A DNA stretch of 64,000 nucleotides from NCBI GenBank assembly GCA_963662175.1, contig OY759224.1, forward strand, positions 22,825,489 through 22,889,488, read 5' to 3'. Positions 6,001 to 39,977 of the stretch are shown here, in pieces; positions within the stretch are counted from its first letter, which is position 1, and every line of letters begins with the position of its first letter. Under the pieces are notes generated by a model. The model searched no databases. It had not been told where the DNA came from and worked only from the letters and a program-made list of their open reading frames with translations. Source of the DNA: Aradus depressus (taxonomy: Eukaryota; Arthropoda; Insecta; Hemiptera; Aradidae). Both the position numbers and the translations under genes were made by a program.

Positions 6001-7244
6001 ATGTTTCATTGTAGAGTTCTTATTCAAATAAGTGTACCCTATGTACCTTCCATACTGACCACACTAGTAACTGATATTAAGGCTCAATAATTATAATGAC
6101 TGGCACTATGTTTCATTGTAGAGTTCTTATTCAAATAAGTGTACCCTATGTATCTCCGAACTGAACACACTAGTAACTGATATTAAGGCTCAATAATTAG
6201 GTATTATGAGTGGCACATTGTTTCATTGTAGAGTTCTTATTCCAATAAGTGTACCCTATGTACCTTCCGTACTGGCCACACTAGTAACTGATATTAAGGC
6301 TCAATAATTATAATGACTGGCACATTGTTTCATTGTAGAGTTCTTATTCAAATAAGTGTACCCTATGTACCTTCCGTACTGGCCACACTAGTAACTGATA
6401 TTAAGGCTCAATAATTAGGTATTATGAGTGGCACATTGTTTCATTGTAGAGTTCTTATTCAAATAAGTGTACCCTATGTACCTTCCGTACTGGCCACACT
6501 AGTAACTGATATTAAGGCTCAATAATTATTATGAGTGCACTATGTTTCATTGTAGAGTTCTTATTCAAATAAGTGTACCCTATGTATCTCCGAACTGAAC
6601 ACATTAGTAACTGATATTAAGGCTCAATAATTATAATGACTGGCACTATGTTTCATTGTAGAGTTCTTATTTAAATAAGTGTACCCTATGTACCTTCCGA
6701 ACTGAACACACTAGTAACTGATATTAAGGCTCAATAATTATTATGAGTGGCACTATGTTTCATTGTAGAGATCTTATTTAAATAAGTGTACCCTATGTAC
6801 CTTCCGTACTGAACACACTAGTAACTGATATTAAGGCTTAATAATTATTATGAGTGGCACTATGTTTCATTGTAGAGTTCTTATTTAAATAAGTGTACCC
6901 TATGTACCTTCCGAACTGAACACACTAGTAACTGATATTAAGGCTCAATAATTATTATGAGTGGCACTATGTTTCATTGTAGAGTTCTTATTTAAATAAG
7001 TGTACCCTATGTACCTTCCGTACTGAACACACTAGTAACTGATATTAAGGCTCAATAATTATTATGACTGGTACTATGTTTCATTGTAGAGTTCTTATTC
7101 AAATAAGTGTACCTTATGTATCTCCGAACTGAACACACTAGTAACTGATATTAAGGCTCAATAATTATTATGAGTGGCACTTTGTTATTATAATAAGTGT
7201 ACTCTATGTACCTTCCGAACTGAACACACTAGTATTTGATATTT
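1..7244. repeat. Satellite sat1, array A, 107-bp unit (about 67 copies)
   Basis: Head-to-tail tandem repeat with a 107-bp period, read directly from successive copies of the tgtagagttctta start (1, 108 and so on). Units fall into subtypes by the centre of the first block (ttatttaaataag, ttattcaaataag, ttattgaaataag) and by ccgtactgaac, ccatactgacc or ccgtactggcc further on. The T-type unit holds the perfect 14-bp palindrome CTTATTTAAATAAG. The array already runs at base 1, so its left edge lies outside the window. The last unit (from about 7170) is decayed. No reading frame stays open, and no function is claimed. Confidence 0.97.
541..6700. repeat. Higher-order repeat inside sat1: two copies of a 3219-bp block
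   Basis: The order of sat1 subtypes in about 541-3480 recurs in about 3760-6699 at a constant offset of 3219 bp (about 30 monomers). Marker variants check the offset: the aataataattatgac junction (611 and 3830), accctctgtatctcc (1741 and 4960) and the ttagtaactg variant (2618 and 5837). Only scattered differences are visible, for example gtagcctatg against gtaccctatg. A second shift of 2469 bp relates 1-540 to 2470-3009. This is recent block duplication within the array. Confidence 0.85.
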
Positions 7245-7357: not shown

Positions 7358-7435
7358 AATTTATTCATTTGTATTTAATATATCACAAGTATTTAAAATA
7401 AATGTTACTAAGACATTTTTGTATGAACATTTCAG

Positions 7436-7471
7436 GAGTTTCTCAACTGTTATTTTGAGACGGCTCATTAT
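7436..7471 (+). CDS. Micro-exon 1a (module 1) of a modular small-exon gene
   Basis: A 36-nt exon between ...gaacatttcag and gtaagtata. Only frame 0 is open both here and in its paralogue at 16808-16843; the other two frames meet stops in one or both copies. It encodes 12 residues, EFLNCYFETAHY, and enters and leaves in phase 0. Its paralogue keeps length, phase and both splice signals but reads EFLLCCLNKANL, so 5 of 12 residues agree. By hand count 24 of 36 exon bases match, against 57 of 60 bases in the intron just upstream. That pattern supports a real exon under diversifying change. I recognise no domain. The gene must start left of the window, or beyond the satellite, because no initiator or signal peptide lies nearby. 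Confidence 0.62.
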
Positions 7472-8394
7472 GTAAGTATACTGTTTTTCAAACTGAATTT
7501 TGTATACACATGGGGCGTTTCATAATATCCTCATCCCACTTTTTTTGTTTTTAGAATTTCAAAGTGGGTTTTTGATTTTTGTTCTTCTTCAGGTTTAGTT
7601 TTGTTTTTCGCTATGTAATATATTTTCGTATGAAGTCAACAAAGAAAAATATATAACTCAAAACAATTATTTATTACGTTTACTTCGAATCAGACTACAT
7701 CATTTTCACTTTTATGAAGGGAAAAATGTCGGCAGGGGGTCACCGGCAATGTATTTTCCCAGTACGAATAATTCAACTAGATTTTCGCTCTCTCGCCAAA
7801 ACCACTTGAACTAAAAATCAGCAGTGGGACTTAAATTGAGCTTTCTGAATCTTCAAACGTACTGTAGAAGAGTTCGGAAGCCCAAAGGCACCCTCCATTT
7901 TTCGCATGTTGCTTTAACAGGTTTTTTTGACAAAATAATGGTCAGTTATAACACAATACAATTACTTCAACTTTCCTCCACTCATTTACTGGGAAACATG
8001 AGTGAAATTATAGTAATGTTAACATCACTTCGTTAATAAATAAATCAGTAATGAAGGTTATTTCTGTTTTCATCCATAACAACACTATTTTCTGACTGAC
8101 GAGCACTACTAGCACCTGGACGGTGAATAATATATGAAATAAAGTAGCTACTCTATCGAATAGAGTGTGCAAAAATTCTCATTATCAAAAAAAGAGAACC
8201 AGAATTTAAAAACAAAATAGAGACCTCACCTGCAGGTGCCTCTGGGAACTGGAAGGTTATCATAAAGATTCAGTAAATATCATCTATTACTATTATTATT
8301 ATTTAACATACAATAAACATTTTTGTTGAACAGTGTAATTATGAATATGTATAATGTAAAAATATTTAATTATATATATTTTTCTCAATCGTAG
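7472..8394 (+). other. Intron between exons 1a and 3a; old interspersed repeat only
   Basis: No coding exon is seen. Bases about 7690-7800 (gggtcaccggcaatgtatttt and onwards) belong to the same interspersed family seen near 17090, 29010 and 46990. Bases 8040-8394 align closely with 18360-18421 plus 19512-19800 in module 2. The site actactag at 8105-8112 is the empty counterpart of the hAT-like insertion at 18422-19511. Confidence 0.7.
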
Positions 8395-8503
8395 AGAAAA
8401 AAGGCACATCAAGTTGCTTGGCATTTATGGATGGCAAACATTTCTATAGTGAAACAAATTAGCATGGCTAAGGTGAAAGAAGTCGAGGAGACCTGCTTGC
8501 ATC
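8395..8503 (+). CDS. Micro-exon 3a (module 1), 109 nt, phase 0 to 1
   Basis: The acceptor is tttttctcaatcgtag and the donor is gtaggtata. Frame 0 is open for 36 codons and leaves one base (phase 1). The peptide contains AWHLW, KQISMAKVKEVEETC and one Cys. Its paralogue 19801-19909 has the same length, acceptor and phase and keeps W-x-x-W, K-(Q/R)-ISM-x-K-x-K-x-V and the Cys, but 60 of 109 bases match by hand count. The 60 bases of intron before it match at 56. The donor is chosen at 8504 rather than 8508 because that keeps 109 nt and the frame. No known domain is recognised. The Lys-rich, single-Cys composition would suit a small secreted protein, which is inference. Confidence 0.65.
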
Positions 8504-8719
8504 GTAGGTATATTTGTAGAAATATATACTTGAAAGATTTTTTTTAAAATATTTCTATATCTCAACATTTTTCTTTGCAATCTATTTACAATGTACATAA
8601 TAAACAAATATAATATCTATTTACAAGAATAAGTGTCTATGTTATGTGATGGGAGAAGTCAGCCAGCGCTAGATAGGATCCCTAGAATGTAATTAAATGC
8701 TAAAATTTCACATAGATCT

Positions 8720-9070
8720 CGAGGCCACCTCCTATTCAGACGCCGAGAAGGATTGTCAGGATGGAATTGAGAGAATAGGACTTGTGCAAATGGGTTAGGT
8801 TGGGATGAAAGTTAATTGTCATTGAAAGGATTGGGATTGGATTAGATTCTAGACGGTTGAGATATTTAGGTCTATATGGAATACTTTTTTGGTGACATAA
8901 AAAGGAGCATTTACAATTCAACGGAAAGCTCGGATGCTGTTTATATTGGATTGTTTGGCTGAACCCCATAATTCGAGGCCGTATGACCATATTGGGTGTA
9001 TTATAGTCTCGTAAATTATAAGTTTGATGGCAGTAGAAAGATTGATTTTGTTCCAAGCAGCGTATGTAGA
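8720..9070 (-). pseudogene. Relic of jockey-type retrotransposon RT C-terminus (module 1 copy)
   Basis: The complement of about 9030-8860 reads IIYETIIHPIWSYGLELWG, then KQSNINSIRAF, a stop, and IVNAPFYVT. This is the conserved stretch after the RT catalytic core in jockey-like non-LTR elements. Downstream the frame breaks further. Stops inside the conserved block show a dead copy. The same relic, with that first stop absent, lies in the homologous intron of module 2 (20119-20730), so it predates the module duplication. Confidence 0.7.
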
Positions 9071-9321
9071 AGTCCCTAAAGTCGATTCAACTCACGTCGT
9101 GTGTGTGGGTTCCACATCAGTCGCCATAGTAGAACCCGAGATAACGTACCTAGTTGGAGGAACTTATTAAAATATTATTGATGGTGATTGGAGGGCAGGT
9201 TTGATAGCGAAGTCTGCATGTAACCTGTACACATTTCTCTTCATTTAAATTTAAATATTTTAAATCATGTTACTTATCACTAAGAAATTTTAATAATAGC
9301 ACATATTTATTTTTTTATTAG

Positions 9322-9393
9322 AACAAAGTAAGGATGGCGATCGTCCTAAACTCGTTCGGACGGTGATGTGCATAGCAACAGGATTTTCTAATG
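9322..9393 (+). CDS. Micro-exon 4a (module 1), 72 nt, phase 1 to 1
   Basis: The acceptor is ...tttttttattag and the donor gtaagaatttat. Joined to the phase-1 end of exon 3a, the frame is open throughout and again leaves one base. The peptide includes SKDGDRPKLVRTVMCIATG with a single Cys. Its paralogue at 21476-21556 is 81 nt, nine longer, so in frame, and shares only V-x-C-I-x-T clearly. By contrast 57 of the first 60 intron bases after the donor are identical. It is also probably related to exon 5a (see 10113). No domain is recognised. Confidence 0.62.
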
Positions 9394-9444
9394 GTAAGAA
9401 TTTATATGAAGAAAATAATTATTAAATGAAAGTTCATGTCATCT

Positions 9445-9649
9445 ACTAGCTGTGGTTGTTGAAGTTCTGGCAAATCACTGTTTTAGTGAGTCAGATGAGT
9501 TCTTTAGTAGGAGTGTCTGCTTTCCATGTAAGCATCTTTGTCGCATTTGTTCTGAATTAACAAGAACATATATAATTGGAGACTGGTAAAGATTTAAAGA
9601 TGCCATATCTGAGTGACTCTCCCGAGCAACGCCACCCACCACAGCTAGT
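9445..9649. mobile_element. Small inverted-repeat element holding one sat3 unit
   Basis: It is bounded by the perfect 12-bp inverted repeat ACTAGCTGTGGT (9445) and ACCACAGCTAGT (ending 9649). Bases about 9472-9583 are one diverged copy of the 108-bp sat3 unit that forms the 60-copy array at 21636-28083. The inner right side (ctcccgagcaacgcca) resembles the hairpin-plus-CTAGT end of the Helitron-like repeats at 56600-56982 and 60000-60471. The left end aactagctgtggttgttga pattern is also present at the start of the big array (21609). No clear target duplication was seen. Confidence 0.65.
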
Positions 9650-9804
9650 AATTTATACATAATGTTACTCTATCTCTAAAGTATTTTGAAAGTTGAACAA
9701 AATTGATATAATATGAGCCTTTATTCGGCCAGCGATTTTGGGGCGAAAAGGTTTGGGTTTTGGGCAATTTTGGGGCTGATGTAGTGAGAAGTGATTATTT
9801 CATA

Positions 9805-10021
9805 TGTAAAATAAAATATAGTGTGACCTCACAGATTTTATTGATATTTGCTACCCGGCTTTCGAGGTTGCCCTCATCATCAGGCAGTATGATTAAACAT
9901 TTTAATTATGTTATTTTCAAATTTATTTTATCATACTGCCTGATGATGATGGGAAACCTCGAAAGCCGGCAAGCTATTATCAATAAAATCTATGAGAGGT
10001 CAGACTATATTTTATTTTACA
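9805..10021. mobile_element. Foldback element, 217 bp, near-complete palindrome
   Basis: Two arms of roughly 90 bp are inverted copies: TGTAAAATAAAATATAGT at the left and its complement at the right end. Inside these lie the mirrored ccggctttcgaggtt / aacctcgaaagccgg and catcatcaggcagtatga / tcatactgcctgatgatg. A short AT loop separates them. No coding capacity. A related foldback with a longer loop sits at 17511-17975 at a different intron position, so the two insertions are independent. Confidence 0.85.
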
Positions 10022-10112
10022 ACCTGTGTAGTAGGCGATATGACCTTGTAGCCGCTATTCTCACATATATTACTATAGACGTTTTTTATTAACACTTAAT
10101 TTTTATTTTTAG

Positions 10113-10205
10113 TGAATACAGACCTGGAGGAGACAATAAAAAAGAGTATCGAGAAGGATATAGAAGATGCAACTGATTGTGCTCTAGAAGATAATATCTC
10201 TATAG
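10113..10205 (+). CDS. Micro-exon 5a (module 1), 93 nt, phase 1 to 1
   Basis: The acceptor is taatttttatttttag and the donor gtaataatttat. In the frame set by exon 4a it is open over its whole length, starting with a Val codon across the junction and leaving one base. The peptide contains TDLEETIKKSIEKDIEDATD followed at once by a single Cys, and is strongly acidic. Its donor context (gtaataatttatatt) resembles that of exons 4a and 4b (gtaagaatttatatg). Phase class and the DLE start match exon 4b, which suggests exon 5a is an old copy of exon 4. No module 2 counterpart was found after the sat3 array. Confidence 0.6.
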
Positions 10206-10894
10206 GTAATAATTTATATTCAATATTATTAATATATTATATGGAATAGTATATATATAATATAGTATATATATATACTATTTATTTATATATATATAAT
10301 ATAGTATATATTATAGTATTAAAAATATGCAGTATATTATATACTGCTGCATGCAGTGATTTGTACGGAGAAAATTGATGAATTACTTATATTGTACTAA
10401 TTATTTTAAGTTTTGCTAAAAAATGCCTGTGTAAGGTTGTTTTGAAGCCCTGTAGCCCAGTAGCCAGGTACATCTTATCTCGAAAAAAGTCGGGTATTAG
10501 ATTTTTTTTCCTACTTATATATATTGAGCCCAGTTTTCCTATTTGTTTTCCAAGTTTTCCAATTCGAAAGACTTCAGCCAAAAATCTGTGACCTAAACAC
10601 GAAGAAATTTTTGTACTTTTTTTTTGTTTTTTTTTTTAAGTATCCCTGCACGAGTTGGCTTTAGAGCTTTGATAGTTTCATCAATCTTGACATCTAAAAA
10701 CAATTTTTACTATTACTTTTTTCGTATAAACCCAATGATAAACGCACTGCAGCGTCAGGAAAATGGTACAGTTTTTCAAACTTCGCGTAAAAAACACAAA
10801 ATTCAGTTTTCTGGCATAATTACTCATATATCTAGCAATATTTGAGTGATACGTCATATTATGTATATCACAATATAGTAAACATATATATATA

Positions 10895-11877
10895 TATATA
10901 TATACTGTAACGATACTTTTACTCGCTTACATTTACTTTAATATTATTTTGAAGTCCCTATTTCGCGAGCCATTTATATAATGGTCCTTACCTTATATTT
11001 TATATAATACCATACTATAATTAAAAGTGGTACTAAATTACTATAAAAGATAAGACGTACATTTTTATTTGATTACTTAGATTGATTTATGTTTTATTAA
11101 TAAAATTATTTTTTTTTTTAAAAGGTTTAGTCACATTTTTTTTACAAACATAAATTACCCCAATTATAACCGGTCTTGATGCTTGAGATTTGATGAGGGT
11201 GGTGTCTTCATATTTTTTGTAGTGATGTGATGGAATGACTCCTCTTAAGTACAGAATCGTGCTCCTCTCATATTTTTCTCTTAGTTGGTGGTTGCAAAAT
11301 TATGATCTCTGGATAGTCTGCTCCTGTATGCCTCTATTTCTTGATTCTCATGGTGGTAAGTAACACCAGCTGGCTCCGGCTAAGTGTCCATCATACAACA
11401 GTACTCACTGCACTACACATATTTCTTAAGATCTTATTAGAGATCTCCGCGCACTCACTACTCTGAACCACGATCTCCTGAACACGCCTGATAAACGACT
11501 CCCTGCCTCTCGAGGGGACAGACGACTTATCCAGTTTTTAATTGCGCTATGCCCATTGGCCACAATTTTTACAGCCTTCAAACTACTAAACAACCGTTTT
11601 TTTTTAATATTCATAACAATTACATATTTCCGTATACAATTCTAGTTGCTTACATTTATTGTTAACACACTATTACCTTATTATTTAATTTTATTACATT
11701 ATTGAAATAAATGAATTGATATATTTTTGTACTATATCGACCCTGGTACATTATCGATATGATAACCTCCAGTAACCTTCCTTAGGTCTCATACAATGAT
11801 TGAAACTCTAGTACATTATTTTTCATTTATTAAATATTAATGTAATGAACAATATGGGTCATTACAATATATGTATA
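10895..11877. mobile_element. Possible non-autonomous DNA element with imperfect terminal repeats
   Basis: The ends tatatactgtaacgatac (left) and, on the complement, tatatattgtaatgaccc (right) are similar inverted repeats. Both are embedded in TA-rich flanks that could be target duplications. Inside, 11340-11580 is less AT-rich than its surroundings. No transposase frame is visible. The TA-rich ends could also match by chance, so the call is weak. Confidence 0.25.
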
Positions 11878-12129
11878 ATATTATTATATATACGTATTAG
11901 GAATAATATTTGCATTGATAATAAATAACTACCTACCTATTTATTATCATTGATATCAGACGTTCTATATATTAGAAATAGTTTTTATAATTACGAATGA
12001 AAACTAAACTGAATAATTAAAAGAGGAAATAAATAAAAATGAATTGATAACAAAATATATTTAAACAAAAAAAATTGATACCCTTTTGTTAAAAGTAAGA
12101 AAAGACAATAGCTGACTGGAGAAGACATT

Positions 12130-12345
12130 GTTGATAGAGACATGGCGTTGTTTTGATGAGGTAGTGCTTGCTTACTGAACTCAAGGTCGCAGGTTAAAAC
12201 CCGGCCGAGACCCTTAGTTTATTTTACCTGGGAGGTAAAATAATCTTAAGCACGCCGTCCTTCGGATGGGACGTTAAGCGATGGTCCCGAGCCTGTACAA
12301 CGTCTGGTACTCTTCCCTAAATGACCCCTTCCCTAAATGAATAAA
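12130..12345 (+). mobile_element. tRNA-derived SINE
   Basis: The head is tRNA-like (tagtgcttgcttactgaactc, then ggttaaaaccc in the B-box place). The body is cacgccgtccttcggatggg then acgttaagcgatggtcccga, which also occurs at 28225-28312 (head-truncated) and 58505-58690. A related head without this body lies at 60868-60935. These four sites define an interspersed tRNA-headed family. The pol III boxes here are degenerate, so this copy is probably inactive. Confidence 0.75.
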
Positions 12346-12433
12346 ACTATTAAGTAAATACATTCATTGCCATAAAGGTGTAATAAAAAGTTTATCAACT
12401 TATATATATAATTGATGAATTTGTTATTCTCAG

Positions 12434-12489
12434 AGGATGTTGGAAGATTCGTAAATACGTGGGAACATCCAGTAAGAGAAAATATAAAT
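12434..12489 (+). CDS. Micro-exon 6a (module 1), 56 nt, phase 1 to 0
   Basis: The acceptor is tttgttattctcag and the donor gtaagttttgg. In the frame delivered by exon 5a it reads DVGRFVNTWEHPVRENIN after a junction Glu codon, and ends exactly on a codon boundary. That returns the transcript to phase 0, as the next exon (1b at 16808) requires. The module total 36+109+72+93+56 is 366 nt, or 122 codons. It has no Cys but carries a Trp. The next intron holds 3.7 kb of sat1 and sat2. Confidence 0.57.
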
Positions 12490-12555
12490 GTAAGTTTTGG
12501 TTTATTTTTAATTAATTTGTCAAATTTTCAAAATATATATTACTGCATACAATAA

Positions 12556-14457
12556 TAACTATTATGAGTGGCACTATGATTCATTGTAGAGTTCTTATTC
12601 AAATAAGTGTACCCTATGTACCTTCCGAACTGAACACACTAGTAACTGATATTAAGGCTCAATAATTATTATGAGTGGCACTATGTTTCATTGTAGAGTT
12701 CTTATTCAAATAAGTGTACCCTATGTACCTTCCGAACTGAACACACTAGTAACTGATATTAAGGCTCAATAATTATTATGAGTGGCACTATGTTTCATTG
12801 TAGAGTTCTTATTCAAATATGTGTACCCTATGTACCTTCCGAACTGAACACACTAGTAACTGATATTAAGGCTCAATAATTATTATGAGTGGCACTATGT
12901 TTCATTGTAGAGTTCTTATTCAAATATGTGTACCCTATGTACCTTCCGAACTGAACACACTAGTAACTGATATTAAGGCTCAATAATTATTATGAGTGGC
13001 ACTATGTTTCATTGTAGAGTTCTTATTGAAATAAGTGTACCCTATGTACCTTCCGAACTGAACACACTAGTAACTGATATTAAGGCTCAATAATTATTAT
13101 GAGTGGCACTATGTTTCATTGTAGAGTTCTTATTCAAATAAGTGAACCCTATGTACCTTCCGAACTGAACACACTAGTAACTGATATTAAGGCTCAATAA
13201 TTATTATGAGTGGCACTATGTTTCATTGTAGAGTTCTTATTCAAATAAGTGTACCCTATGTACCTTCCGAACTGAACACACTAGTAACTGATATTAAGGC
13301 TCAATAATTATTATGAGTGGCACTATGTTTCATTGTAGAGTTCTTATTCAAATAAGTGTACCCTATGTACCTTCCGAACTGAACACACTAGTAACTGATA
13401 TTAAGGCTCAATAATTATTATGAGTGGCACTATGTTTCATTGTAGAGTTCTTATTCAAATAAGTGTACCCTATGTACCTTCCGAACTGAACACACTAGTA
13501 ACTGATATTAAGGCTCAATAATTATTATGAGTGGCACTATGTTTCATTGTAGAGTTTTTATTCAAATAAGTGTACCCTATGTACCTTCCGAACTGAACAC
13601 ACTAGTAACTGATATTAAGGCTCAATAATTAGGTATTATGAGTGGCACTATGTTTCATTGCAGTGTTCTTATTTAAATAAGTGTACCCTATGTACCTTCC
13701 ATACTGAACACACTAGTAACTGATATTAAGGCTCAATAATTAGGTATTATGAGTGGCACTATGTTTCATTGCAGTGTTCTTATTTAAATAAGTGTACCCT
13801 ATGTACCTTCCATACTGAACACACTAGTAACTGATATAAGGGCTCAATAATTATCATGAGTGGCACTATGTTTCTTTGTAGAGTTCTTATTCAAATATGT
13901 GTACCCTATGTACCTTCCGAACTGAACACACTAGTAACTGATATTAAGGCTCAATAATTATTATAAGTGGCACTATGTTTCATTGTAGAGTTCTTATTCA
14001 AATAAGTGTACCCTATGTACCTTCCGAACTGAACACACTAGTAACTGATATTAAGGCTCAATAATTAGGTATTATGAGTGGCACTATGTTTCATTGCAGT
14101 GTTCTTATTTAAATAAGTGTACCCTATGTCCCTTCCATACTGAACACACTAGTAACTGATATTAAGGCTCAATAATTATCATGAGTGGCACTATGTTTCT
14201 TTGTAGAGTTCTTATTCAAATATGTGTACCCTATGTACCTTCCGAACTGAACACACTAGTAACTGATATTAAGGCTCAATAATTATTATAAGTGGCACTA
14301 TGTTTCATTGTAGAGTTCTTATTCAAATAAGTGTACCCTATGTACCTTCCGTACTGAACGCACTAGTAACTGATATTAAGGCTCCAAAATTAGGTATTAA
14401 GAGTGGTAGTATGTTTCATTGTAGAGTTCTTATTCAAACAAGTGTACCCTATGGATC
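12556..14457. repeat. Satellite sat1, array B (about 18 units of 107 bp)
   Basis: Same 107-bp family as 1-7244, starting near ataactattatgagtggc and ending in a broken unit at accctatggatctat. Most units are the ttattcaaataag / ccgaactgaac subtype. From 13620 a short higher-order pattern appears, with aattaggtattatg, gcagtgttcttattta and caaatatgtgtacc variants recurring. It sits in the intron between module 1 and module 2, directly before sat2, the same order as in module 1. Confidence 0.96.
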
Positions 14458-16257
14458 TATACGAAGTAAAGGGGAAGTTATGTAGTCGGTCTAACATTTT
14501 ATGTCGATACATTCACTAATACGGCAGTTACTGTACTTACCTAGCTAAGCGAAGTATAGGGGAAGTTATGTAGTCGGTCTAACAATTTATGTCGATACAT
14601 TCATTACAACGGCAATTACTGTACTTACCTAGCTATACGAAGTATAGGGAAAGTTATGTAGTCGGTCTAACATTTTATGTCGATACATTCATTACATCGG
14701 CAGTTACTGTATTTACCTAGCTAAGCGAAGTATAGGGGAAGTTATGTAGTCGGTCTAACAATTTATGTCGATACATTCATTAGAACGGCAATTACTGTAC
14801 TTACCTAGCTATACGAAGTATAGGGAAAGTTATGTAGTCGGTCTAACATTTTATGTCGATACATTCATTACATCGGCAGTTACTGCACTTACCTAGCTAT
14901 GCGAAGTATAGGGGAAGTTATGTAGTCGGTCTAATATTTTATGTCGATACATTCATTACAACGGCAGTTACTGTACTTACCCAGCTATACGAAGTATAGG
15001 GGAAGTTATGTAGTCGGTCTAACATTTTATGTCGATACATTCATTACAACGGCAGTTACTGTACTTACCCAGCTATACGAAGTATAGGGGAAGTTATGTA
15101 GTCGGTCTAACATTTTATGTCGATACATTCATTACAACGGCAGTTACTGTACTTACCTAGCTAAGCGAAGTATAGGGGAAGTTATGTAGTCGGTCTAACA
15201 ATTTATGTCGATACATTCATTACAACGGCAATTACTGTACTTACCTAGCTATACGAAGTATAGGGAAAGTTATGTAGTCGGTCTAACATTTTATGTCGAT
15301 ACATTCATTACAACGGCAATTACTGTACTTACCTAGCTAAGCGAAGTATAGGGGAAGTTATGTAGTCGGTCTAACATTTTATGTCGATACATTCATTACA
15401 ACGGCAGTTACTGTACTTACCCAGCTATACGAAGTATAGGGGAAGTTATGTAGTCGGTCTAACATTTTATGTCGATACATTCATTACAACGACAGTTACT
15501 GTACTTACCTAGCTAAGCGAAGTATAGGGGAAGTTATGTAGTCGGTCTAACAATTTATGTCGATACATTCATTACAACGGCAATTACTGTACTTACCTAG
15601 CTATACGAAGTATAGGGAAAGTTATGTAGTCGGTCTAACATTTTATGTCGAATCATTCATTACAACTGCAGTTACTGTACTTACCTAGCTATAAGAAGTA
15701 TAGGGAAAGTTATGTAGTCGGTCTAACATTTTATGTCGAATCATTCATTACAACTGCAGTTACTGTACTTACCTAGCTATACGAAGTATAGGGAAAGTTA
15801 TATAGTCGGTCTAACATTTTATGTCGAATCATTCATTACAACTGCAGTTACTGTACTTACCTAGCTTTACGAAGTATAGGGGAAGTTATGTAGTCGGTCT
15901 AACATTTTATGTCGATACATTCATTACAACGGCAGTTACTGTACTTACCCAGCTATACGTAGTATAGGGAAAGTTATGTAGTCGGTCTAACATTTTATGT
16001 CGAATCATTCATTACAACTGTAGTTACTGTACTTACCCAGCTATACGAAGTGTAGGGAAAGTTATGTAGTCGGTCTAACATTTTATGTCGAATCATTCAT
16101 TACAACTGCAGTTACTGTACTTACCTAGCTATACGAAGTATAGGGAAAGTTATGTAGTCGGTCTAACATTTTATGTCGATATATTCATTACAACGGCAAT
16201 TACTGTACTTACCCAGCTATACGAAGTATAGGGGAAGTTATATAGTCGGTCTAACAT
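14458..16257. repeat. Satellite sat2 array, 88-bp unit (about 20 copies)
   Basis: Tandem period of 88 bp, seen for example in tagtcggtct at 14483 and 14571. Each unit carries gtcgatacattcatta, gcagttactgtacttacc and agctatacgaagtatagggg. Variants (ctaagcgaag, cgaatcattc, ggcaattactg) show unit exchange. Pieces of the same sequence occur singly at 7245 and in interspersed repeats near 29800 and 60940, which suggests the satellite grew out of one end of an interspersed element. Confidence 0.96.
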
Positions 16258-16807
16258 GCGGAATTTTCAATGGAAATTCATGTTTTCCGACCTCTATATT
16301 CCAAATATGAAAAAACATAGTTTCTGTGTGCACGATACTTCCCGATATAATGAATGTATTGACGCGAAATTTTTTATTTAAAATCAAAACCCAAAACGTT
16401 ATCGCCTGAAGGAAAGGGGTTTTGGGGCGGGGGCTCAATTCAAAACGTAATAACTTCCGATGTAATGAATTTATCGACACAAAATTTATAATGATGATTT
16501 AGTAGCCTCTGTGTAAAGCAACTGTTGAATATTAGCACAAACGGTCGAATGGGAGAGACAAGTTAATTGATTAATTCGTTCTGGCTAAGTACATTGTTGG
16601 CGATTCACAGATTTTGTTAAATATTTGGAATCTAGAGGTTTGACACATTAAATTCCGTTGAAAATTCCCCAAATGTGTGACTGATTACATACCTTCCCCT
16701 ATACTTAGTTTAGCTGGGGAAGTAAAATAATTTATTCATTATGTATTTAATATATCACAAGTATTTAAAATAAATGTTACTAATAAATTTTTTTATGAAC
16801 ATTTCAG
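16258..16807. repeat. Interspersed repeat remnant and intron before exon 1b
   Basis: 16258-16735 contains pieces (aatttcatg, ccgacctctat, cgatgtaatgaat, agctggggaagtaaaa) of the same interspersed family as 29424-29820 and 60940-61260, mostly in the opposite sense. From 16730 the sequence aligns with 7360-7435 of module 1. No coding content is seen. Confidence 0.6.
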
Positions 16808-16843
16808 GAATTTCTCCTCTGTTGTTTGAATAAGGCTAACCTT
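16808..16843 (+). CDS. Micro-exon 1b (module 2), 36 nt, phase 0 to 0
   Basis: Paralogue of 7436-7471 with the same length, acceptor (gaacatttcag) and donor (gtaagtatatt). Frame 0 reads EFLLCCLNKANL; the other two frames contain stops. It carries two adjacent Cys where exon 1a has Cys-Tyr. It follows exon 6a in phase 0 and leads in phase 0 to exon 3b, so the two modules can be read as one continuous transcript. Confidence 0.62.
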
Positions 16844-17510
16844 GTAAGTATATTATTTTACAAACTGAATTTTGTATACACACGGTATGTTTCATAATAT
16901 CCTCACGCCGTTTTTTTTTCTTAATAGAATTTGTTTTTGTTGTTGTTCAGGTTTAGTTTTGTTTTTTGCTATGTAATATATTTTCGAATGAACTCAACAA
17001 AGAAACATTTATAACACAAAACAATTATTTTTCGTTTATTTCGAATCAGACTACATCATTTTCACTTTTATGAAGGGAATAAGTCGTCAGGGGGTCACCG
17101 ACAATGTATTTCCCCAGTACGAATTAAACAATTAAATTTTCGCACTTCCGCCAAAACCACTTGGGCTAAAAATCAGTTGTGGACCTAAATGAATTGTGGC
17201 CTTTCTGAATCCTCACACTAAACTTTGAGTTGATACATTCATTACATCGGCAGCAATTTGATGTATTGAGTTAAACCCTCCTTTCCTTTGGGCGATTTGG
17301 CTGAAAATTAATAGTTGTTGTCCTTCCAGGGCTCTGGATAAACATATAAAAGTTCGTGTCAGTATATTCATTACATCGGCAGTTATGTTCACAGACACAT
17401 ACATTATTTATTTCATTTTTGGAATCAGGGGATCGGAAAACATTAAATTCTGGTGAAAACTCGACATCGAATTTCATACCTATTACATAAATTCCTCTAT
17501 ACTTTCACAG

Positions 17511-17975
17511 TTGCAAAATAAAATATAGTCTGACTTCTTATAGATTTTATTAATTTTTGCTAGCCTGCATTCGTGGTTGTCCTCATCATCAGGGAATCTG
17601 GTAAAATTATTTTAAAAACAACATAGGTAATTTAAAATTATTGAGAGAAAAAGAAATTATTTAAAATGGTTAATAAATAAAATTTAAAAACTAAAAGCAA
17701 CTTATATAAAACTATTCATAAACAATTTCATTGATGGGGACAGTTTTTTATTCTTTTGAGACTCAGATGGAGAACAGGAACAACATACTGTCCCCATCCA
17801 TGATTTTTCTAATTGTTAAATAGTTTTATATACGCTTATTTTAAGTTTCAAATTTATTTATTTACATATTTTAAATTATTGTTTTTAACATTATTTTACC
17901 ATACTGACTGATGAGGGCAACCTCTATTGCCGAATTGCAAAAATTAATAAAATATGTGAGAGGTCAAACTTTAGA
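17511..17975. mobile_element. Foldback element with nested inner inverted repeat
   Basis: The left arm (gcaaaataaaatatagtctg, ctcatcatcaggg) and right arm (tgatgagggcaacctc, gtgagaggtcaaac) are inverted copies related to the 217-bp foldback at 9805. The loop is longer and carries its own inverted repeat gatggggacagt (17735) and actgtccccatc (17788). The right terminus is eroded. Confidence 0.7.
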
Positions 17976-18421
17976 TAGACTGTACAGCGTAACATGTACT
18001 TTTAGATACACAGGATGTCCAGTAGGTATGTCCAGAAAAATATGAACTTTTACATAGATCCTGTCCAGTATAACATAAACTTTCGGATTAGATGTCCAGC
18101 TACTTACGGATCATCAATATTACAATATAAGTTTGAGTTAAAAATACAAAAAAAGTGTTAGGAACATAGTTTACGAATATATTAGACTTTGGCGGTTAGT
18201 AGGTACTGTAGAAAAGTTTGGACGCCCAAAGGCACCCGCCATTTTCGGCAAGTCGCTTTGACATTCTTTTTTGGCAAAACAATGGTCAGTTATAATTTAC
18301 CAGGGAACATAAGTAAAACTAAAAGTAATGTTAACATCATTTCGTTAAAAAATAAATCAGTAACGAAGGTTATGCATGTTTTCATCCATAACACTATTTT
18401 CTGACTGACAAGCACTACTAG

Positions 18422-19511
18422 CAGTATTGCCAAGTTCTTCCAACAAAATCCCCCTACATTTAAATAATCTCCCCCCCAAAAAAACGCAATAATTTTTTCA
18501 TTGTATAATTTGTTTACTGTTACCAAATTTCGTTTACAAAACGAACTTCTGAAAAATGAGAATAATGAAAAACAATTTTTAAAGGTCCCTACTATTATAT
18601 TATAACAATAATTATAAGTATCAACGAAAAATATATAATTTTAAAATTTAACGGCTTCAATCAAATAATTTATAATAAACTAGTATGTGATGACTAATGC
18701 CAATATATCGTAATATTATGTCTTATTTAATATAAAATAAAATACATTTCTTTATTTAAAAAATGTGACCACTTAGAAAGTGTAAAAATTGGTAGAAATC
18801 TCTATTTTTAAATAGTGAAAAAATTGCTTAAAATTTCGATTTAAAAAAGTATGAAAATTGTTAAAATTTAGGGAAAACGTTATTATATGTTTTTTTTTCC
18901 GATTAGGTACCTAAATGTCATCCGGCAAACTTTCTAAAATTTCAACAATTCCCTCATTTGATTTGTCTAAATACTATATATGATCGTACATATGTTGGGT
19001 CCACAGTTTCAACATATTTGCCTAAAGTTGAAATTTTACACAGGGAATTTCATCGACCTTTAGAGAGTACCCCACCCTATATATATATATATTGGATTAA
19101 GTCCGATTAAATCGAGGAAAATATTAAAATTTTGAAGAAATAAGTTTTTGAAATAATATATAAAATTAAATACCTCCAGAAGCGCCAAAAGATTCAAGAA
19201 ACAAAAATGGAACTCAGGACTCAGGAGGCGACGAATCTGTTGATGGTGTGAATATCGATTTACTCATATCGATCCGAATACCAGTTTCATCGACACCTCG
19301 ACGGAACAGGAAGAGAACCAGTTCTAAATAATATATCGGTGTTCACAAAAGCTTAATTTATTTTTTTTAACAAAAAGAAGAATTCCCCTAAAAAAACCTA
19401 AAAACATTTTTCCATCCGAAAAAAATTTTTAAATATTACTCCCCCTAAATTTACCCCTTTTGAAAAAAATTCCCTAAATCTTGAGAGAAAACCCCGGACT
19501 TGGCAACACTG
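18422..19511. mobile_element. hAT-like insertion, 1090 bp, with empty site in module 1
   Basis: The ends are CAGTATTGCCAAGT and, inverted, CAGTGTTGCCAAGT (13 of 14). It is flanked by 8-bp direct copies actactag (18414-18421) and actactaa (19512-19519). Module 1 has a single actactag at 8105-8112 with matching sequence on both sides, so this is a clean filled versus empty pair. An 8-bp target duplication and CAG...CTG ends are typical of the hAT superfamily. No transposase frame is visible, so it is non-autonomous or decayed. The insertion postdates the module duplication. Confidence 0.88.
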
Positions 19512-19800
19512 ACTACTAACACCTGGACGGTGAATAATATATAAAATGAAGTAGCTACTCTAACGGATAGATTGCGCAAAATTCTCATTGTCAAAAAAGG
19601 AGAACCAGAATTTAAAAACAAAATAGAGACGTCACCTACAGTTGCCTCTGGGAACTGGAAGGTTATCATAATGATTCAGTAAATATCATCTATTACTATT
19701 ATCATTATTAAACGAAAAATAAATAATTTTGTTGAACAGTGTAATTATGTATATGTATGATGTAAATATATTTAATTATATTTATTTTTCTCAATCGTAG

Positions 19801-19909
19801 ATTTCAGAACAAAAACCATTTGATTGGGGTGCATGGGAGACTGATTCTTTGAAACCGAAACGAATTAGTATGAATAAGCAGAAGCAAGTCCGTGATGCAT
19901 GCAAAGATG
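19801..19909 (+). CDS. Micro-exon 3b (module 2), 109 nt, phase 0 to 1
   Basis: The acceptor tttttctcaatcgtag is identical to that of exon 3a; the donor is the textbook gtaagtata. Frame 0 is open for 36 codons plus one base. The peptide includes SEQKPFDWGAWETDSLKP and KRISMNKQKQVRDAC. The W-x-x-W, K-x-ISM-x-K and Cys positions match exon 3a; most other residues differ. The junction codon with exon 4b is an Ala codon. No known domain is recognised. Confidence 0.7.
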
Positions 19910-20118
19910 GTAAGTATATTCGAAGAAATAAATAAGTACTTGAAAACCTTTTTTTTATACGTATGTTTCTATATTTTTCTTTGCAATCTATATACAATGT
20001 ACATAATAAACAAATATGGTAAATATTTACATGAATAAGTGTTTATGTTATATGATGGGAGAAGTCAGCCAGCGCTAGATAGGAACCCTAGAATGTAATT
20101 AAATGTTTAAATTTCACT

Positions 20119-20730
20119 TAGAAGATCTCGAGGCCACCTCCTATTCAGACGCCGAGAAGGATTGTCAAGATGGAATTGAGAGAATAGGACTTGTGCAAAT
20201 GAATTAGGTTGGGATGAAAGTTAATTGTCATTGAAAGGATCGGGATTGGACTAGTTCCTAGACGGTTGGGATATTTAGGTCTTCATGGAATACTTTATTG
20301 GTGACGTAGAAAGGAGCATTTACAATTCGACGGAAAGCTCGGATGCTGTTTATATTGGATTGTTTGGCGGAACCCCATAATTCGAGGCCGTATGTCTGTT
20401 AAGAAATTAGTACGACTAAATAGCACAACATAAGTATTTAACTTTATTTTACTGAGATGGTTTTTCAAACATATGTATAATATACAAATCAAATATAATA
20501 ATAATAACAGATGTTTTAATAAACATCAATGTCCTAACAATGTCCATATGGGGTGAATTATAGTCTTGTAAATTGTCAGTTTGATGGCAGTAGAATGTTT
20601 TGATTTTGTTCCAAGTAGTCAATTTGAACATTTTAAATCTTATGGTTGTTACTTCTACGTAGTAGTCTATACCGTCGATTCAACTCTCGTCGTTCACGTC
20701 ATGTTTCTGGGATCCATGTCAGTAGGCTGT
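20119..20730 (-). pseudogene. Jockey-type RT relic (module 2 copy), interrupted by an insertion
   Basis: The complement of 20395-20265 reads YGLELWGSAKQSNINSIRAF, then RRIVNAPFYVTNKVFHEDLN without a stop. The module 1 copy has a stop at the first Arg of that second piece, so this copy preserves the older state. A further frame (complement of 20220-20110) gives NPSRRLNRRWPRDL, the usual tail of this block. About 135 bp at 20398-20533, absent from module 1, splits the relic. The copy is dead. Confidence 0.72.
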
Positions 20731-20784
20731 ATTGTGAATGTACACATTTCTCTTCATTTAATTTTAAATCATGTTATTTATCAC

Positions 20785-21432
20785 TAGAGACCGGATTTTT
20801 ATGCAAATGCATATTTTGTTTACCACCACATACGACTCAGGAGATCTTTCCGAATCATGCATCTAGGATACCATAGACTAAATGTCTGCATTGCATATTT
20901 TTGCATTTTTAAAATATTGCATAAAATTGCATATTTAATGGATGTTAGCATATATTAAATATTTCGCGTAAAATATCTATATTTTAAAAATCAATTTTTG
21001 AAGGTAAAATGAAGAAGAATAAAAGTTTTACTCAGTCGCTACATTAATTGAAAACGCAAGCCTTGTAAAATTATTGTCATTCGTAAAAACGCATTGCGCT
21101 TTTTAGGTAGTTTCGATAAAAAAAAATTTTAAAGAGAGGCATACCGTTAAATGAAAATCTATTACAATAATTATTAAGTGAGTATTAATGTAAAATATTC
21201 TTAATATAAACAAATAATAATATATCGTGTCTGTTAAATAAAAATACCTTTAGAGTTTTTCTTTGTTTTAATTCAATTTCAATTTTTTACTGCATAAAAT
21301 CGTATATTTCTACATGTTTCAAAGCATATTTTAATATATTATATTGCACACTACTTGCATATTTCAGCATTCTAAACTGCATATTTTAAGACATATTTTA
21401 GCAGTCTTTAGTACATAAAAATCCGGTCTCTA
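20785..21432. mobile_element. hAT-like miniature element, 648 bp
   Basis: The ends are TAGAGACCGGATTTTTATG and the same 19 bases inverted at 21414-21432. It is absent from the aligned intron of module 1 (about 9276). The flanking 8-mers tttatcac and catattac agree at only 5 of 8, so the target duplication is eroded or my ends are off by a base or two. The interior repeats gcatattttgcat-like motifs and has no frame. It is a second insertion after the module duplication. Confidence 0.75.
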
Positions 21433-21475
21433 CATATTACCAAGCAGTTTTAATAATAGCACATATTTTTTTTAG

Positions 21476-21556
21476 CTGAAGATCTTGAAAAGGATTCCAC
21501 TGCAGAACGAGCCGCTAAAATTGTAAAATGCATATCAACAGAAGTATTGAAAGATG
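21476..21556 (+). CDS. Micro-exon 4b (module 2), 81 nt, phase 1 to 1
   Basis: The acceptor is acatattttttttag and the donor gtaagaatttat, the same as exon 4a. In the frame from exon 3b it is open, with EDLEKDSTAERAAKIVKCIS and a downstream TEVLKD, and it ends one base into a Gly codon. It has one Cys, in V-x-C-I-x-T as in exon 4a. It is three codons longer than 4a. The next intron begins with the sat3 array. If the transcript splices next to 28465, the protein would end Gly-stop. Confidence 0.66.
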
Positions 21557-21635
21557 GTAAGAATTTATATGAAGAAAAAAATTATTAAATGAAAGTTCAT
21601 CTCATATACTAGCTGTGGTTGTTGATGTTGACGGG

Positions 21636-24600
21636 AAAATCACTGTTTTAGTGAGTCAGATGAGTCCTGTAGTAGGAGTGTCTGCTTTCCATGTAAAGCA
21701 TTTTTGTCGTATTAGTATTGCATTAACAAGAACATATACAGTCAAAATCACTGTTTTAGTGAGTCAGATGAGTCCTTTAATAGGAGTGTCTGCTTTCCAA
21801 GTAAAGCATTTTTGTCATATTTGTTTTGGATTAACAAGAACATATACAGTCAAAATCACTGTTTTAGTGAGTCAGATGAGTCCTTTAGTAGGAGTGTCTG
21901 CTTTCCATGTAAAGCATTTTTGTCGTATTAGTATTGGATTAACAAGAACATATACAGTCAAAATCACTTTTTTAGTGAGTCAGATGAATCCTTTAGTAGG
22001 AGTGTCTGCTTTCCATGTAAAGCATTTTTGTCGTATTAGTATTGGATTAACAAGAACATATACAGTCAAAATCACTGTTTTAGTGAGTCAGATGAGTCCT
22101 TTAGTAGGAGTGTCTGCTTTCCATGTAAAGCATTTTTGTCGTATTAGTATTGGATTAACAAGAACATATACAGTCAAAATCACTTTTTTAGTGAGTCAGA
22201 TGAGTCCTTTAGTAGGAGTGTCTGCTTTCCAAGTAAAGCATTTTTGTCATATTTGTTTTGGATTAACAAGAACATATACAGTCAAAATCACTGTTTTAGT
22301 GAGTCAGATGAGTCTTTTAGTAGGAGTGTCTGTTTTCCACGTAAAACATTTTTATCGCATTTGTATTGGATTTCCAAGAACATATACAGTCGAAATCACT
22401 GCTTTATTGAGTGAGATGAGTCCTTTAGTAGGAGTGTCTGCTTTCCATGTAAAGCATTTTTGTCATATTTGTTTTGGATTAACAAGAACATATACAGTCA
22501 AAATCACTGTTTTAGTGAGTCAGATGAGTCCTTTAATAGGAGTGTCTGCTTTCCAAGTAAAGCATTTTTGTCATATTTGTTTTGGATTAACAAGAACATA
22601 TACAGTCAAAATCACTGTTTTAGTGAGTCAGATGAGTCCTTTAGTAGGAGTGTCTGCTTTCCAAGTAAAGCATTTTTGTCATATTTGTTTTGGATTAACA
22701 AGAACATATACAGTCAAAATCACTGTTTTAGTGAGTCAGATGAGTCCTTTAGTAGGAGTGTCTGCTTTCCATGTAATGCATTTTTGTCGTATTTGTATTG
22801 GATTAACAAGAACATATACAGTCAAAATCACTGTTTTAGTGAGTCAGATGAGTCCTTTAGAAGGAGTGACTGCTTTCCAAGTAAAGCATTTTTGTCATAT
22901 TTGTTTTGGATTAACAAGAACATATACAGTCAAAATCACTGTTTTAGTGAGTCAGATGAGTCCTTTAGTAGGAGTGTCTGCTTTCCAAGTAAAGCATTTT
23001 TGTCATATTTGTTTTGGATTAACAAGAACATATACAGTCAAAATCACTGTTTTAGTGAGTCAGATGAGTCCTTTAGTAGGAGTGTCTGCTTTCCAAGTAA
23101 AGCATTTTTGTCATATTTGTTTTGGATTAACAAGAACATATACAGTCAAAATCACTGTTTTAGTGAGTCAGATGAGTCCTTTAGTAGGAGTGTCTGCTTT
23201 CCATGTAATGCATTTTTGTCGTATTTGTATTGGATTAACAAGAACATATACAGTCAAAATCACTGTTTTAGTGAGTCAGATGAGTCCTTTAGAAGGAGTG
23301 ACTGCTTTCCAAGTAAAGCATTTTTGTCATATTTGTTTTGGATTAACAAGAACATATACAGTCAAAATCACTGTTTTAGTGAGTCAGATGAGTCCTTTAG
23401 TAGGAGTGTCTGCTTTCCAAGTAAAGCATTTTTGTCATATTTGTTTTGGATTAACAAGAACATATACAGTCAAAATCACTGTTTTAGTGAGTCAGATGAG
23501 TCCTTTAGTAGGAGTGTCTGCTTTCCATGTAAAGCATTTTTGTCGTATTAGTATTGGATTAACAAGAACATATACAGTCAAAATCACTTTTTTAGTGAGT
23601 CAGATGAGTCCTTTAGTAGGAGTGTCTGCTTTCCATGTAAAGCATTTTTGTCGTATTAGTATTGGATTAACAAGAACATATACAGTCAAAATCACTGTTT
23701 TAGTGAGTCAGATGAGTCCTTTAGAAGGAGTGACTGCTTTCCAAGGAAAGCATTTTTGTCATATTTGTTTTGGATTAACAAGAACATATACATTCAAAAT
23801 CACTGTTTTAGTGAGTCAGATGAGTCCTCTAGTAGGAGTGTCTGCTTTCCATGTAAAGCATTTTTGTCGTATTAGTATTGGATTAACAAGAACATATACA
23901 GTCAAAATCACTGTTTTAGTGAGTCAGATGAGTCCTTTAATAGGAGTGTCTGCTTTCCAAGTAAAGCATTTTTGTCATATTTGTTTTGGATTAACAAGAA
24001 CATATACAGTCAAAATCACTGTTTTAGTGAGTCAGATGAGTCCTTTAGTAGGAGTGTCTGCTTTCCATGTAAAGCATTTTTGTCGTATTAGTATTGGATT
24101 AACAAGAACATATACAGTCAAAATCACTGTTTTAGTGAGTCAGATGAGTCCTTTAATAGGAGTGTCTGCTTTCCAAGTAAAGCATTTTTGTCATATTTGT
24201 TTTGGATTAACAAGAACATATACAGTCAAAATCACTGTTTTAGTGAGTCAGATGAGTCCTTTAGTAGGAGTGTCTGCTTTCCATGTAAAGCATTTTTGTC
24301 GTATTAGTATTGGATTAACAAGAACATATATAGTCAAAATCACTTTTTTAGTGAGTCAGATGAGTCCTTTAGTAGGAGTGTCTGCTTTCCATGTAAAGCA
24401 TTTTTGTCGTATTAGTATTGGATTAACAAGAACATATACAGTCAAAATCACTGTTTTAGTGAGTCAGATGAGTCCTTTAGTAGGAGTGTCTGCTTTCCAT
24501 GTAAAGCATTTTTGTCGTATTAGTATTGGATTAACAAGAACATATACAGTCAAAATCACTTTTTTAGTGAGTCAGAATAGTCCTTTAGTAGGAGTGTCTG

Positions 24601-27600: not shown

Positions 27601-28083
27601 GAGTCCTTTAATAGGAGTGTCTGCTTTCCAAGTAAAGCATTTTTATCGTATTTGTTTTGGATTAACAAGAACATATACAGTCAAAATCACTGTTTTAGTG
27701 AGTCAGATGAGTCCTTTAATAGGAGTGTCTGCTTTCCATGTAAAGCATTTTTGTCGTATTAGTATTGGATTAACAAGAACATATACAGTCAAAATCACTT
27801 TTTTAGTTAGTCAGATGAGTCCTTTAGTAGGAGTGTCTGCTTTCCATGTAAAGCATTTTTGTCGTATTAGTATTGGATTAACAAGAACATATACAGTCAA
27901 AATCACTGTTTCAGTGAGTCAGATGAGTCCTTTAGTAGGAGTGTCTGCTTTCCATGTAAAGCATTTTTGTCGTATTTGTATTGGATTAACAAGAACATAT
28001 ACAGTCAAAATCACTGTTTTAGTGAGTCAGATGAGTCCTTTAGTAGGAATATCTGTTTTCCATGTGAAGCATTTTTATGGTGC
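21636..28083. repeat. Satellite sat3 array, 108-bp unit (about 60 copies)
   Basis: Head-to-tail units of exactly 108 bp (36 codons) containing aaaatcactgttttagtgag, tcagatgagtcctttag and attaacaagaacatatac. Two main subtypes differ at tcgtattagtattgg and tcatatttgttttgg. Blocks of subtypes recur at 1944-2052 bp (for example the aaggagtgactg marker at 23293 and 25237), so higher-order duplication is present. Because 108 is a multiple of three and one frame of the unit lacks stops, a long open frame (21615-26510, then 26510-28096 after a one-base deletion near 26476) runs through the array. I treat it as a by-product: it lies inside an intron and the unit variants change amino acids freely. Confidence 0.95.
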
Positions 28084-28464: not shown

Positions 28465-28687
28465 GTTGAACCTCCAGGATACATAATTCCGACATTGTTC
28501 CTTTATAAAATGTATTCAATACAACATGAAATAGAAATATATATGAAGTATTTTTTTTACATCCCAAGTCTGTAGAAATGTAGTTTAATCTATTATTCAC
28601 TGAAGCCATGAATACAATTTCTTGATTACATTCTTACTAGATTTATCTCGGTCACAAACAGGCTACGTGTTCATTCAGTAAAAATTC

Positions 28688-29100: not shown

Positions 29101-29423
29101 CTAATATTCAACATGACTGAAATAAGGGCTAGGTAGTATTGGGGTTTATGAGTTGAGCCCTCCCCTAATATTCAACATGACTGAAATAAGGGCTAGGTAG
29201 TATTGGGGTTTATGAGTTGAGCCCTCCCCTAATATTCAACATGACCTCAATAAGGGCTAGGTAGTATTGGGGTTTATGAGTTGAGCCCTCCTTTAATATT
29301 CAACATGACTGAAATAAGGGCTGGGTAGTATTGGGGTTTATGAGTTGAGCCCTCCCCTAATATTCAACATGACTGAAATAAGGGCTAGGTAGTATTGGGG
29401 TTTATGAGTTGAGCCCTCCTCTA
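29101..29423. repeat. Satellite sat4, short copy (5 units of 64 bp)
   Basis: Five 64-bp units carrying ctaatattcaacatgactg, aataagggctaggtagtatt and gggtttatgagttgagccc. Both flanks match those of the roughly 85-unit array at 47072-52516, so this is the unexpanded copy of the same locus. Confidence 0.95.
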
Positions 29424-37340: not shown

Positions 37341-37359
37341 TTTTTACTTTTGTGGTCAT

Positions 37360-39969: not shown

Positions 39970-39977
39970 GGAGAAAC

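What the first reader, a model, noticed from the sequence alone, without database searches (positions are those of the whole stretch)
7376..21616. Exons diverge far more than their introns between the two modules
Hand counts: the 60 intron bases before exon 1 match at 57, before exon 3 at 56, and after exon 4 at 57. Exon 1 matches 24 of 36, exon 3 matches 60 of 109, and exon 4 differs even in length by three codons. Reading frames are nevertheless kept. This inverted conservation is the mark of strong diversifying selection on a secreted or interacting protein. It is known for gall-midge salivary genes and venom-type families.
Basis: partly seen in the sequence, partly recalled or inferred. 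Interest (0 to 1): 0.92.

Follow-up and report, generated by a model that had tools for sequence, protein, structure and literature searches.

The report
Fast-evolving odorant-binding protein gene cluster
The two modules are parts of a large cluster of odorant-binding-type protein genes in a true bug, in which natural selection appears to have changed the protein-coding pieces faster than the neutral DNA between them.

Summary
At least 17 related modules lie on one chromosome within about 1.2 Mb, with shared splice sites, similar intron flanks and different coding sequence. The spliced protein is an odorant-binding protein (PBP/GOBP, best E 6.5e-14) lacking cysteines C2 and C5, the Minus-C pattern. 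COX1 points to true bugs.

Diversifying selection is supported. Over 128 codon columns and 16 copies omega is 2.29 (2dlnL 49.5 against 1). In six copies, picked after pairwise tests, omega is 3.82 with neutral exon length (0.25) no higher than intron length (0.33); in 13 copies exon length is 1.4 times intron length. Drosophila OBPs average 0.153 (PMC2258175, passage).

Stop exons follow every second module from A to g16; A and B lie 728 bases apart, so they are probably two domains of one protein. Function is inferred only.

The parts
7436..7471 (+). module A, exon E1 (36 bases, phase 0-0, holds C3)
   Evidence: same splice dinucleotides in 16 copies
9322..9393 (+). module A, exon E4 (72 bases, phase 1-1, holds C6)
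9394..10121 (+). interval from A exon E4 to B exon E-1: part of one 108-base unit and an inverted-repeat element; no match to the terminal exon and no convincing signal-peptide exon seen
10122..10205 (+). module B, exon E-1 (84 bases, phase 1-1, holds C1)
   Evidence: DNA matches at 12 other places
12434..12489 (+). module B, exon E0 (56 bases, phase 1-0)
   Evidence: 17 places on C10 with this one
16808..16843 (+). module B, exon E1
19801..19909 (+). module B, exon E3
21476..21556 (+). module B, exon E4
28465..28640 (+). terminal exon after B: GT, stop TGA (28467-28469), then 3' untranslated sequence (end not fixed)
1..7186 (+). 107-base tandem array in the intron before A exon E1
12554..14453 (+). 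107-base tandem array in the B intron E0-E1
14457..16257 (+). 88-base tandem array in the B intron E0-E1
21636..28076 (+). 108-base tandem array in the B intron E4-terminal exon

Best explanation
The two modules are two odorant-binding-protein (OBP) domains of the Minus-C pattern. They belong to a cluster of at least 17 such modules on one chromosome of a true bug, spread by tandem duplication. Since then replacement substitutions in the mature domain have been fixed at about 2 to 4 times the synonymous rate, while introns drifted at or somewhat below the synonymous rate; that is why exons look less conserved than introns. Shown: homology, cysteine pattern, splice structure, copy number, omega above 1. 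Inferred: A and B lie on one transcript as parts of a multi-domain OBP. Inferred, less sure: the proteins are secreted and act against a moving target (prey, host or mate) rather than only carrying odorants. In A, and probably g07 and g08, intron homogenisation or older exon divergence adds to the contrast.
For: Pfam PBP_GOBP at 6.5e-14 (g01), 1.3e-10 (g05), 2e-7 (B); A without its E-1 0.0016, below cut-off. Alignment of g01 to LUSH puts E at C2 and K at C5; read by eye, C2 is absent in 16 of 16 E1 exons and C5 in 13 of 13 E4 exons. Omega 2.29 for 16 copies (2dlnL 49.5 against 1), M2a over M1a 2dlnL 85; 13 close copies omega 2.78. Domain-1 set 2.36, domain-2 set 2.57. Six core copies omega 3.82, exon neutral length 0.246 against intron 0.327; thirty simulations at omega 1 gave 0.84-1.16, maximum 2dlnL 2.66. 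Of 15 pairs tested 9 reject omega 1, up to 2dlnL 17.5 for B-g05. Terminal exon found after 10 of 17 modules, alternating from A to g16.
Against: Six of 15 pairs do not reject omega 1, A-B and B-g08 among them; three of 15 (A-B, A-g13, B-g08) reject t = K, with t 0.24-0.36 against K 0.07-0.12. Exon neutral length exceeds intron length in the 13 close copies (0.937 against 0.667), the domain-1 set (0.637 against 0.321) and the domain-2 set (0.569 against 0.391); the six core copies were picked. With BLAST-based K, dS exceeds K in 83 of 86 pairs (34 of 120 pairs lacked enough columns). Exon E1 alone gives omega 0.99. Exon and intron trees differ, so copies recombine, which can inflate site tests. 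No transcript or tissue data. Some copies are damaged (g09 E3; g10 and g11 E4 acceptor). The exon-by-exon Pfam search of the genome did not ring in this cluster.
Confidence: 0.8

Rival explanations
1. Gene conversion homogenised introns and flanks while older exons escaped; no unusual selection on the protein.
For: Synonymous divergence exceeds intron divergence in A-B, A-g13 and B-g08 and over the 13-copy, domain-1 and domain-2 sets by 1.4, 2.0 and 1.5 times; dS above K in 83 of 86 pairs with BLAST-based K; concerted homogenisation is argued for Hessian fly families (PMC2955719, passages).
Against: It does not by itself give omega above 1, which every set tested as a whole shows. In six copies neutral exon length is below intron length with omega 3.82; in B-g05, B-g06, B-g13, g05-g06, g05-g13 and g06-g13 t lies below K.
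Confidence: 0.15
2. OBPs tuning to many odorants: diversification of ligand pockets within ordinary chemosensation.
For: OBP homology; OBPs are classically chemosensory (recalled).
Against: M2a puts 70% of codons at 2.88 in the 16-copy set, wider than a pocket; but in the 13-copy set it settled at 10% of codons at 4.57, so the breadth is not fixed. Drosophila OBPs average omega 0.153 (PMC2258175, passage).
Confidence: 0.35
3. Relaxed constraint or pseudogenes: copies drift without selection.
For: Some copies have a broken exon or splice site (g09, g10, g11).
Against: Relaxation gives omega near 1, not 2 to 4; most exons read are open with the four cysteines kept.
Confidence: 0.04
4. Each module is its own single-domain gene rather than A and B being one product.
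For: Modules have their own E0 (17 places) and, where looked for, their own E-1; stop exons follow 10 of 17; the signal exon was not resolved for any copy.
Against: No terminal-exon match after A, g05, g07, g09, g11, g13 or g15; A E4 and B E-1 are 728 bases apart with matching phases; diverged E4-type sequence lies upstream of 14 of 17 modules.
Confidence: 0.25

Closest known systems
Minus-C odorant-binding proteins (PBP/GOBP, PF01395)
   Same: Domain match, C2 and C5 missing with the other four cysteines kept, small domain, tandem cluster
   Different: Domain-wide omega of 2.3-3.8 among paralogues against a 0.153 average in Drosophila OBPs (PMC2258175, passage); 36- and 56-base exons, introns with large tandem arrays
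Double-domain OBPs of Nasonia, dimer OBPs of Drosophila and atypical OBPs of mosquitoes (PMC3428353, PMC2258175; passages seen)
   Same: Adjacent OBP domains with the same exon structure, cysteine loss, tandem cluster
   Different: Here inferred from terminal-exon spacing and phases only; in a true bug; possibly more than two domains; the Nasonia passage reports M2 against M1a not significant and M8 against M7 p 0.004
Hessian fly small secreted salivary gland protein families (PMC2955719; passages seen)
   Same: Non-coding parts conserved, mature coding region highly diverged, tandem copies, omega above 1, conversion suspected
   Different: Another insect order, and here the proteins are recognisable OBPs; in six core copies introns are no slower than the synonymous clock
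Aphid bicycle and cassette effector genes (PMC9168663, PMC7495047; passages seen)
   Same: Hemipteran, small proteins from large genes with tiny exons, fast divergence
   Different: Bicycle internal exons are almost all phase 2 and carry CYC motifs; here exon starts are phase 1, 1, 0, 0, 1 and the domain is an OBP
Green lacewing venom OBPs (PMC12758981; passages seen)
   Same: Tandem array of OBP-type proteins with an altered cysteine frame
   Different: Six-cysteine scaffold found in venom; here four cysteines and no expression data

Membership tests
PBP/GOBP odorant-binding proteins | Profile match over the curated cut-off | tested here: met
   g01 52.4, g05 41.8, B 31.6 bits against 22; A without its E-1 19.0, below it. 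Without E-1 and E0, 2 of 6 copies passed
PBP/GOBP odorant-binding proteins | Six-helix fold | not tested
PBP/GOBP odorant-binding proteins | Signal peptide | tested here: inconclusive
   candidate frame upstream of E-1 in several copies has a fitting donor in g15 only; g06 lacks its ATG
Minus-C OBPs | Loss of C2 and C5 with C1, C3, C4, C6 kept | tested here: met
   by eye: C2 absent 16 of 16, C3 present 16 of 16, C4 15 of 15, C5 absent and C6 present 13 of 13; C1 in 12 of 12, also in g01 and A; LUSH alignment. g02 has a Cys one residue before the C5 place
Double-domain OBPs | Two OBP domains on one transcript | tested here: inconclusive
   terminal exon after every second module from A to g16; phases fit; no transcript
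Gall-midge SSSGP families | Non-coding parts conserved, mature exons diverged | tested here: met
Gall-midge SSSGP families | Found in gall midges (Diptera) | tested here: not met
   the 120 COX1 matches listed, of 7999 scored, are 85-88% identical and nearly all named as true bugs; some bear wider labels and one Coleoptera sp.
Bicycle genes | Internal exons of phase 2 | tested here: not met
   exon starts phase 1, 1, 0, 0, 1; feature from PMC9168663 passages
Venom or salivary proteins | Presence in the secretion | not testable with these tools
   no expression or proteome data

The most novel reading that the evidence does not exclude
A true bug carries a megabase cluster of multi-domain Minus-C OBPs (two to four domains per transcript) that have become arms-race proteins secreted in saliva, venom or seminal fluid: one domain type is under diversifying selection over most of its residues, while a neighbouring domain type in the same products changes slowly.
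Probability: 0.33. Interest if true: 0.8.

Novelty: new variant of a known kind. Interest (0 to 1): 0.6.

Why it matters
OBPs are usually under purifying selection, so a cluster whose domain evolves at two to four times the synonymous rate suggests a job other than ordinary odour transport. The similar introns give a neutral clock for each copy, which makes selection, conversion and age measurable, and conserved introns offer a way to find other fast-evolving families that protein searches miss.

Tried and rejected
Rejected: gall-midge or bicycle-type gene (homology, phases, organism). Rejected for the six core copies: whole-exon hypermutation or pure intron homogenisation. Rejected: the cluster as one polyprotein with a single stop, because 10 modules are followed by a terminal exon. 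Intron distance was measured three ways: short flanks (inflated by misaligned T-rich tails; dN above K in 109, dN above dS in 108 and dS above K in 75 of 120 pairs), BLAST pieces (probably too low) and block alignment (relied on). For A-B they give K 0.188, 0.095 and 0.119. In one search simulated pairs with true neutral divergence 0.19 and omega 4.5-6 gave mean NG86 dS 0.29-0.34, and reached the A-B value of 0.55 in 1.0-2.3% of 300, so bias alone hardly explains A-B. A signal-peptide exon upstream of E-1 was not accepted. A protein search with the family alignment scored none of 357 candidates at E 1. A PDB search with one short copy gave one unrelated weak match. Rfam: no match. The whole-genome Pfam search rang at one place, on C9, and not in this cluster. 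No structure prediction was made. In the close-13 set M2a reached 10% of codons at 4.57 and 80% at 1, against 70% at 2.88 in the 16-copy set, so the fraction of selected codons is uncertain. Rows dropped before counts: E3 of g09 (insertion) and the partial second E3 of g13; E4 of g11, the extra E4 of g05 (and of g07 only); E4 of g12 and g15, not found in what I fetched; E-1 of A, g01, g02 and g14 from the codon set (A's was missed by my pattern and found open by eye only afterwards); g17 from all codon work; g11.
Full report
Check. A and B are 89.8% identical over 1581 columns of six alignable intron segments, and no window of 109 bases there falls below 78.9%, against 55.0% for exon 3. Exon 1, only 36 bases long, lies within the tail of intron windows.

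Copies. The window lies in a 698-Mb genome of 74 contigs, on C10 at 22825489-22889488. DNA searches of that genome with pieces of the module found it repeatedly on C10 between 22.63 and 23.81 Mb. The E0 exon with flanks was found at 17 places, B included. I name the modules g01 to g17; A is g03 and B is g04. Sixteen were read. Exons were delimited by conserved acceptor and donor sites. For example, the 60 bases before E3 are almost the same in g06, g10, g14 and g15, while their E3 exons encode clearly different peptides.

Gene structure. Working outward from the conserved flanks gave exons E-1 (84 bases, phase 1-1), E0 (mostly 56, phase 1-0), E1 (36, 0-0), E3 (mostly 109, 0-1), E4 (69-84, 1-1) and a terminal exon that starts GT TGA, so the chain ends Gly-stop. 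E1 joins E3 in phase, so this model needs no exon 2. In the window B has E-1 at 10122-10205, E0 at 12434-12489 and its stop at 28467-28469. A has its E0 and E-1 upstream of the window, at about 22758.4 and 22750.4 kb; both read open. The signal-peptide exon was not resolved for any copy.

What the protein is. The spliced chain matches Pfam PBP_GOBP: g01 6.5e-14, g05 1.3e-10, B 2e-7; A, queried without its E-1, scores 0.0016, below the cut-off. The best PDB matches by sequence are LUSH entries (E 0.003), and that alignment puts E at C2 and K at C5 of g01. Read by eye, C2 is missing in 16 of 16 E1 exons (13 E, one each G, A, R) and C5 in 13 of 13 E4 exons, with the other cysteines kept. This is the Minus-C pattern; that C2 pairs with C5 is recalled. 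COX1 from contig C74 is closest to true bugs at 85-88%, so the animal is very probably a true bug, species unknown.

Selection. I wrote a codon-model program (GY94-type rates, tree from nucleotides, branch lengths scaled). Over 128 codon columns and 16 copies M0 gives omega 2.29; omega 1 is worse by 2dlnL 49.5, and M2a beats M1a by 85. Without g01, g02 and A omega is 2.78. By exon, omega is 3.09 for E0 (10 copies), 0.99 for E1, 2.66 for E3 and 1.96 for E4. Thirty data sets simulated at omega 1 on the 13-copy tree gave 0.84-1.16 and at most 2dlnL 2.66. For six copies (B, g05, g06, g11, g13, g14), which I picked after seeing the pairs, neutral exon length is 0.246 and intron length 0.327, with omega 3.82. 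For all 13 close copies the lengths are 0.937 and 0.667, for the domain-1 set 0.637 and 0.321, for the domain-2 set 0.569 and 0.391. So in the wider sets synonymous change is 1.4 to 2 times intron change, and replacement change is higher again. Writing this out made me lower the confidence in the selection reading from 0.84 to 0.80 and raise the conversion rival from 0.12 to 0.15.

For A-B, maximum likelihood gives neutral exon divergence 0.364 against intron K 0.119 (2dlnL 7.2 against equality) and omega 1.84, not significantly above 1 (2dlnL 2.7). A-g13 and B-g08 behave alike. Of the 15 pairs I chose, 9 reject omega 1 and 3 reject equality of t and K. I conclude that selection drives the family, and that in A and a few others introns have also been homogenised or exons are older.

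Domains per product. The terminal exon was matched after g01, g02, B, g06, g08, g10, g12, g14, g16 and g17, and not after A, g05, g07, g09, g11, g13 or g15: alternation from A to g16. A E4 and B E-1 are 728 bases apart, wholly inside the window, with matching phases and no stop exon seen between. A second, more diverged E4-type sequence matches upstream of 14 of 17 modules, at distances from about 0.3 to 20 kb, and not before B, g08 or g17; six of the seven that I looked at were read as an open exon by the script, the seventh (g11) did not fit its acceptor pattern. In four copies (six pairs) this exon is 94.0% identical with 97.0% in its flanks, while the module exons of the same pairs are 80.5%; so not all OBP-type exons of the cluster change equally fast. 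The simplest reading is a multi-domain OBP with A and B on one transcript. This is inference.

Function. An OBP is reported in saliva of a seed-feeding true bug, with a discussion of OBPs acting in feeding of other insects (PMC12825922, passages); an OBP transcript in venom-gland data of two assassin bugs (PMC7520181, passage); a tandem OBP array in green lacewing venom (PMC12758981, passages). These make a secreted, effector-like role plausible, not shown. Full-text searches of the held library, judged from titles and starts of abstracts, listed no equivalent case of an OBP cluster with exons less conserved than introns; most subscription papers are not in that library.

Noticed in passing
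window 1-7186, 12554-14453, 14457-16257, 21636-28076: Large tandem arrays (107, 88 and 108 base units) sit in introns of the A and B modules; 108-base-type units were matched in 6 of the 10 other loci first fetched, in very different numbers.
   Followed up: partly
window 29980-31343 and 41451-42814: Direct repeats of 1364 bases, 99.7% identical, flank a stretch with endonuclease, reverse transcriptase and RNase H frames at 37279-41171.
   Followed up: partly
window 29101-29425 and 47072-52516: The same 64-base unit forms a short array and a long one of about 85 copies, about 18 kb apart.
   Followed up: no
G000:C10:23644177-23645439: A long nuclear copy of mitochondrial COX1 lies inside the OBP cluster.
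   Followed up: no
L014 4081-4550: Exon E3 of module g09 is split by an insertion of about 360 bases; g10 and g11 have E4 acceptors that do not read AG.
   Followed up: no
L029 2310-2816: Module g13 carries a second, truncated E3-like stretch about 290 bases upstream of the full exon.
   Followed up: no
G000:C10:23374163-23377920: A piece of the sequence after the diverged E4-type exon recurs at steps of mostly 161 bases upstream of g11.
   Followed up: no
L038 3348-3352: In g01 the terminal exon reads TGG where B, g02 and g14 read the stop TGA, so its chain would be longer.
   Followed up: no
L039 (C9:29357000-29362500): The one place where the whole-genome search for PBP_GOBP rang is another OBP-like frame on C9.
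   Followed up: partly
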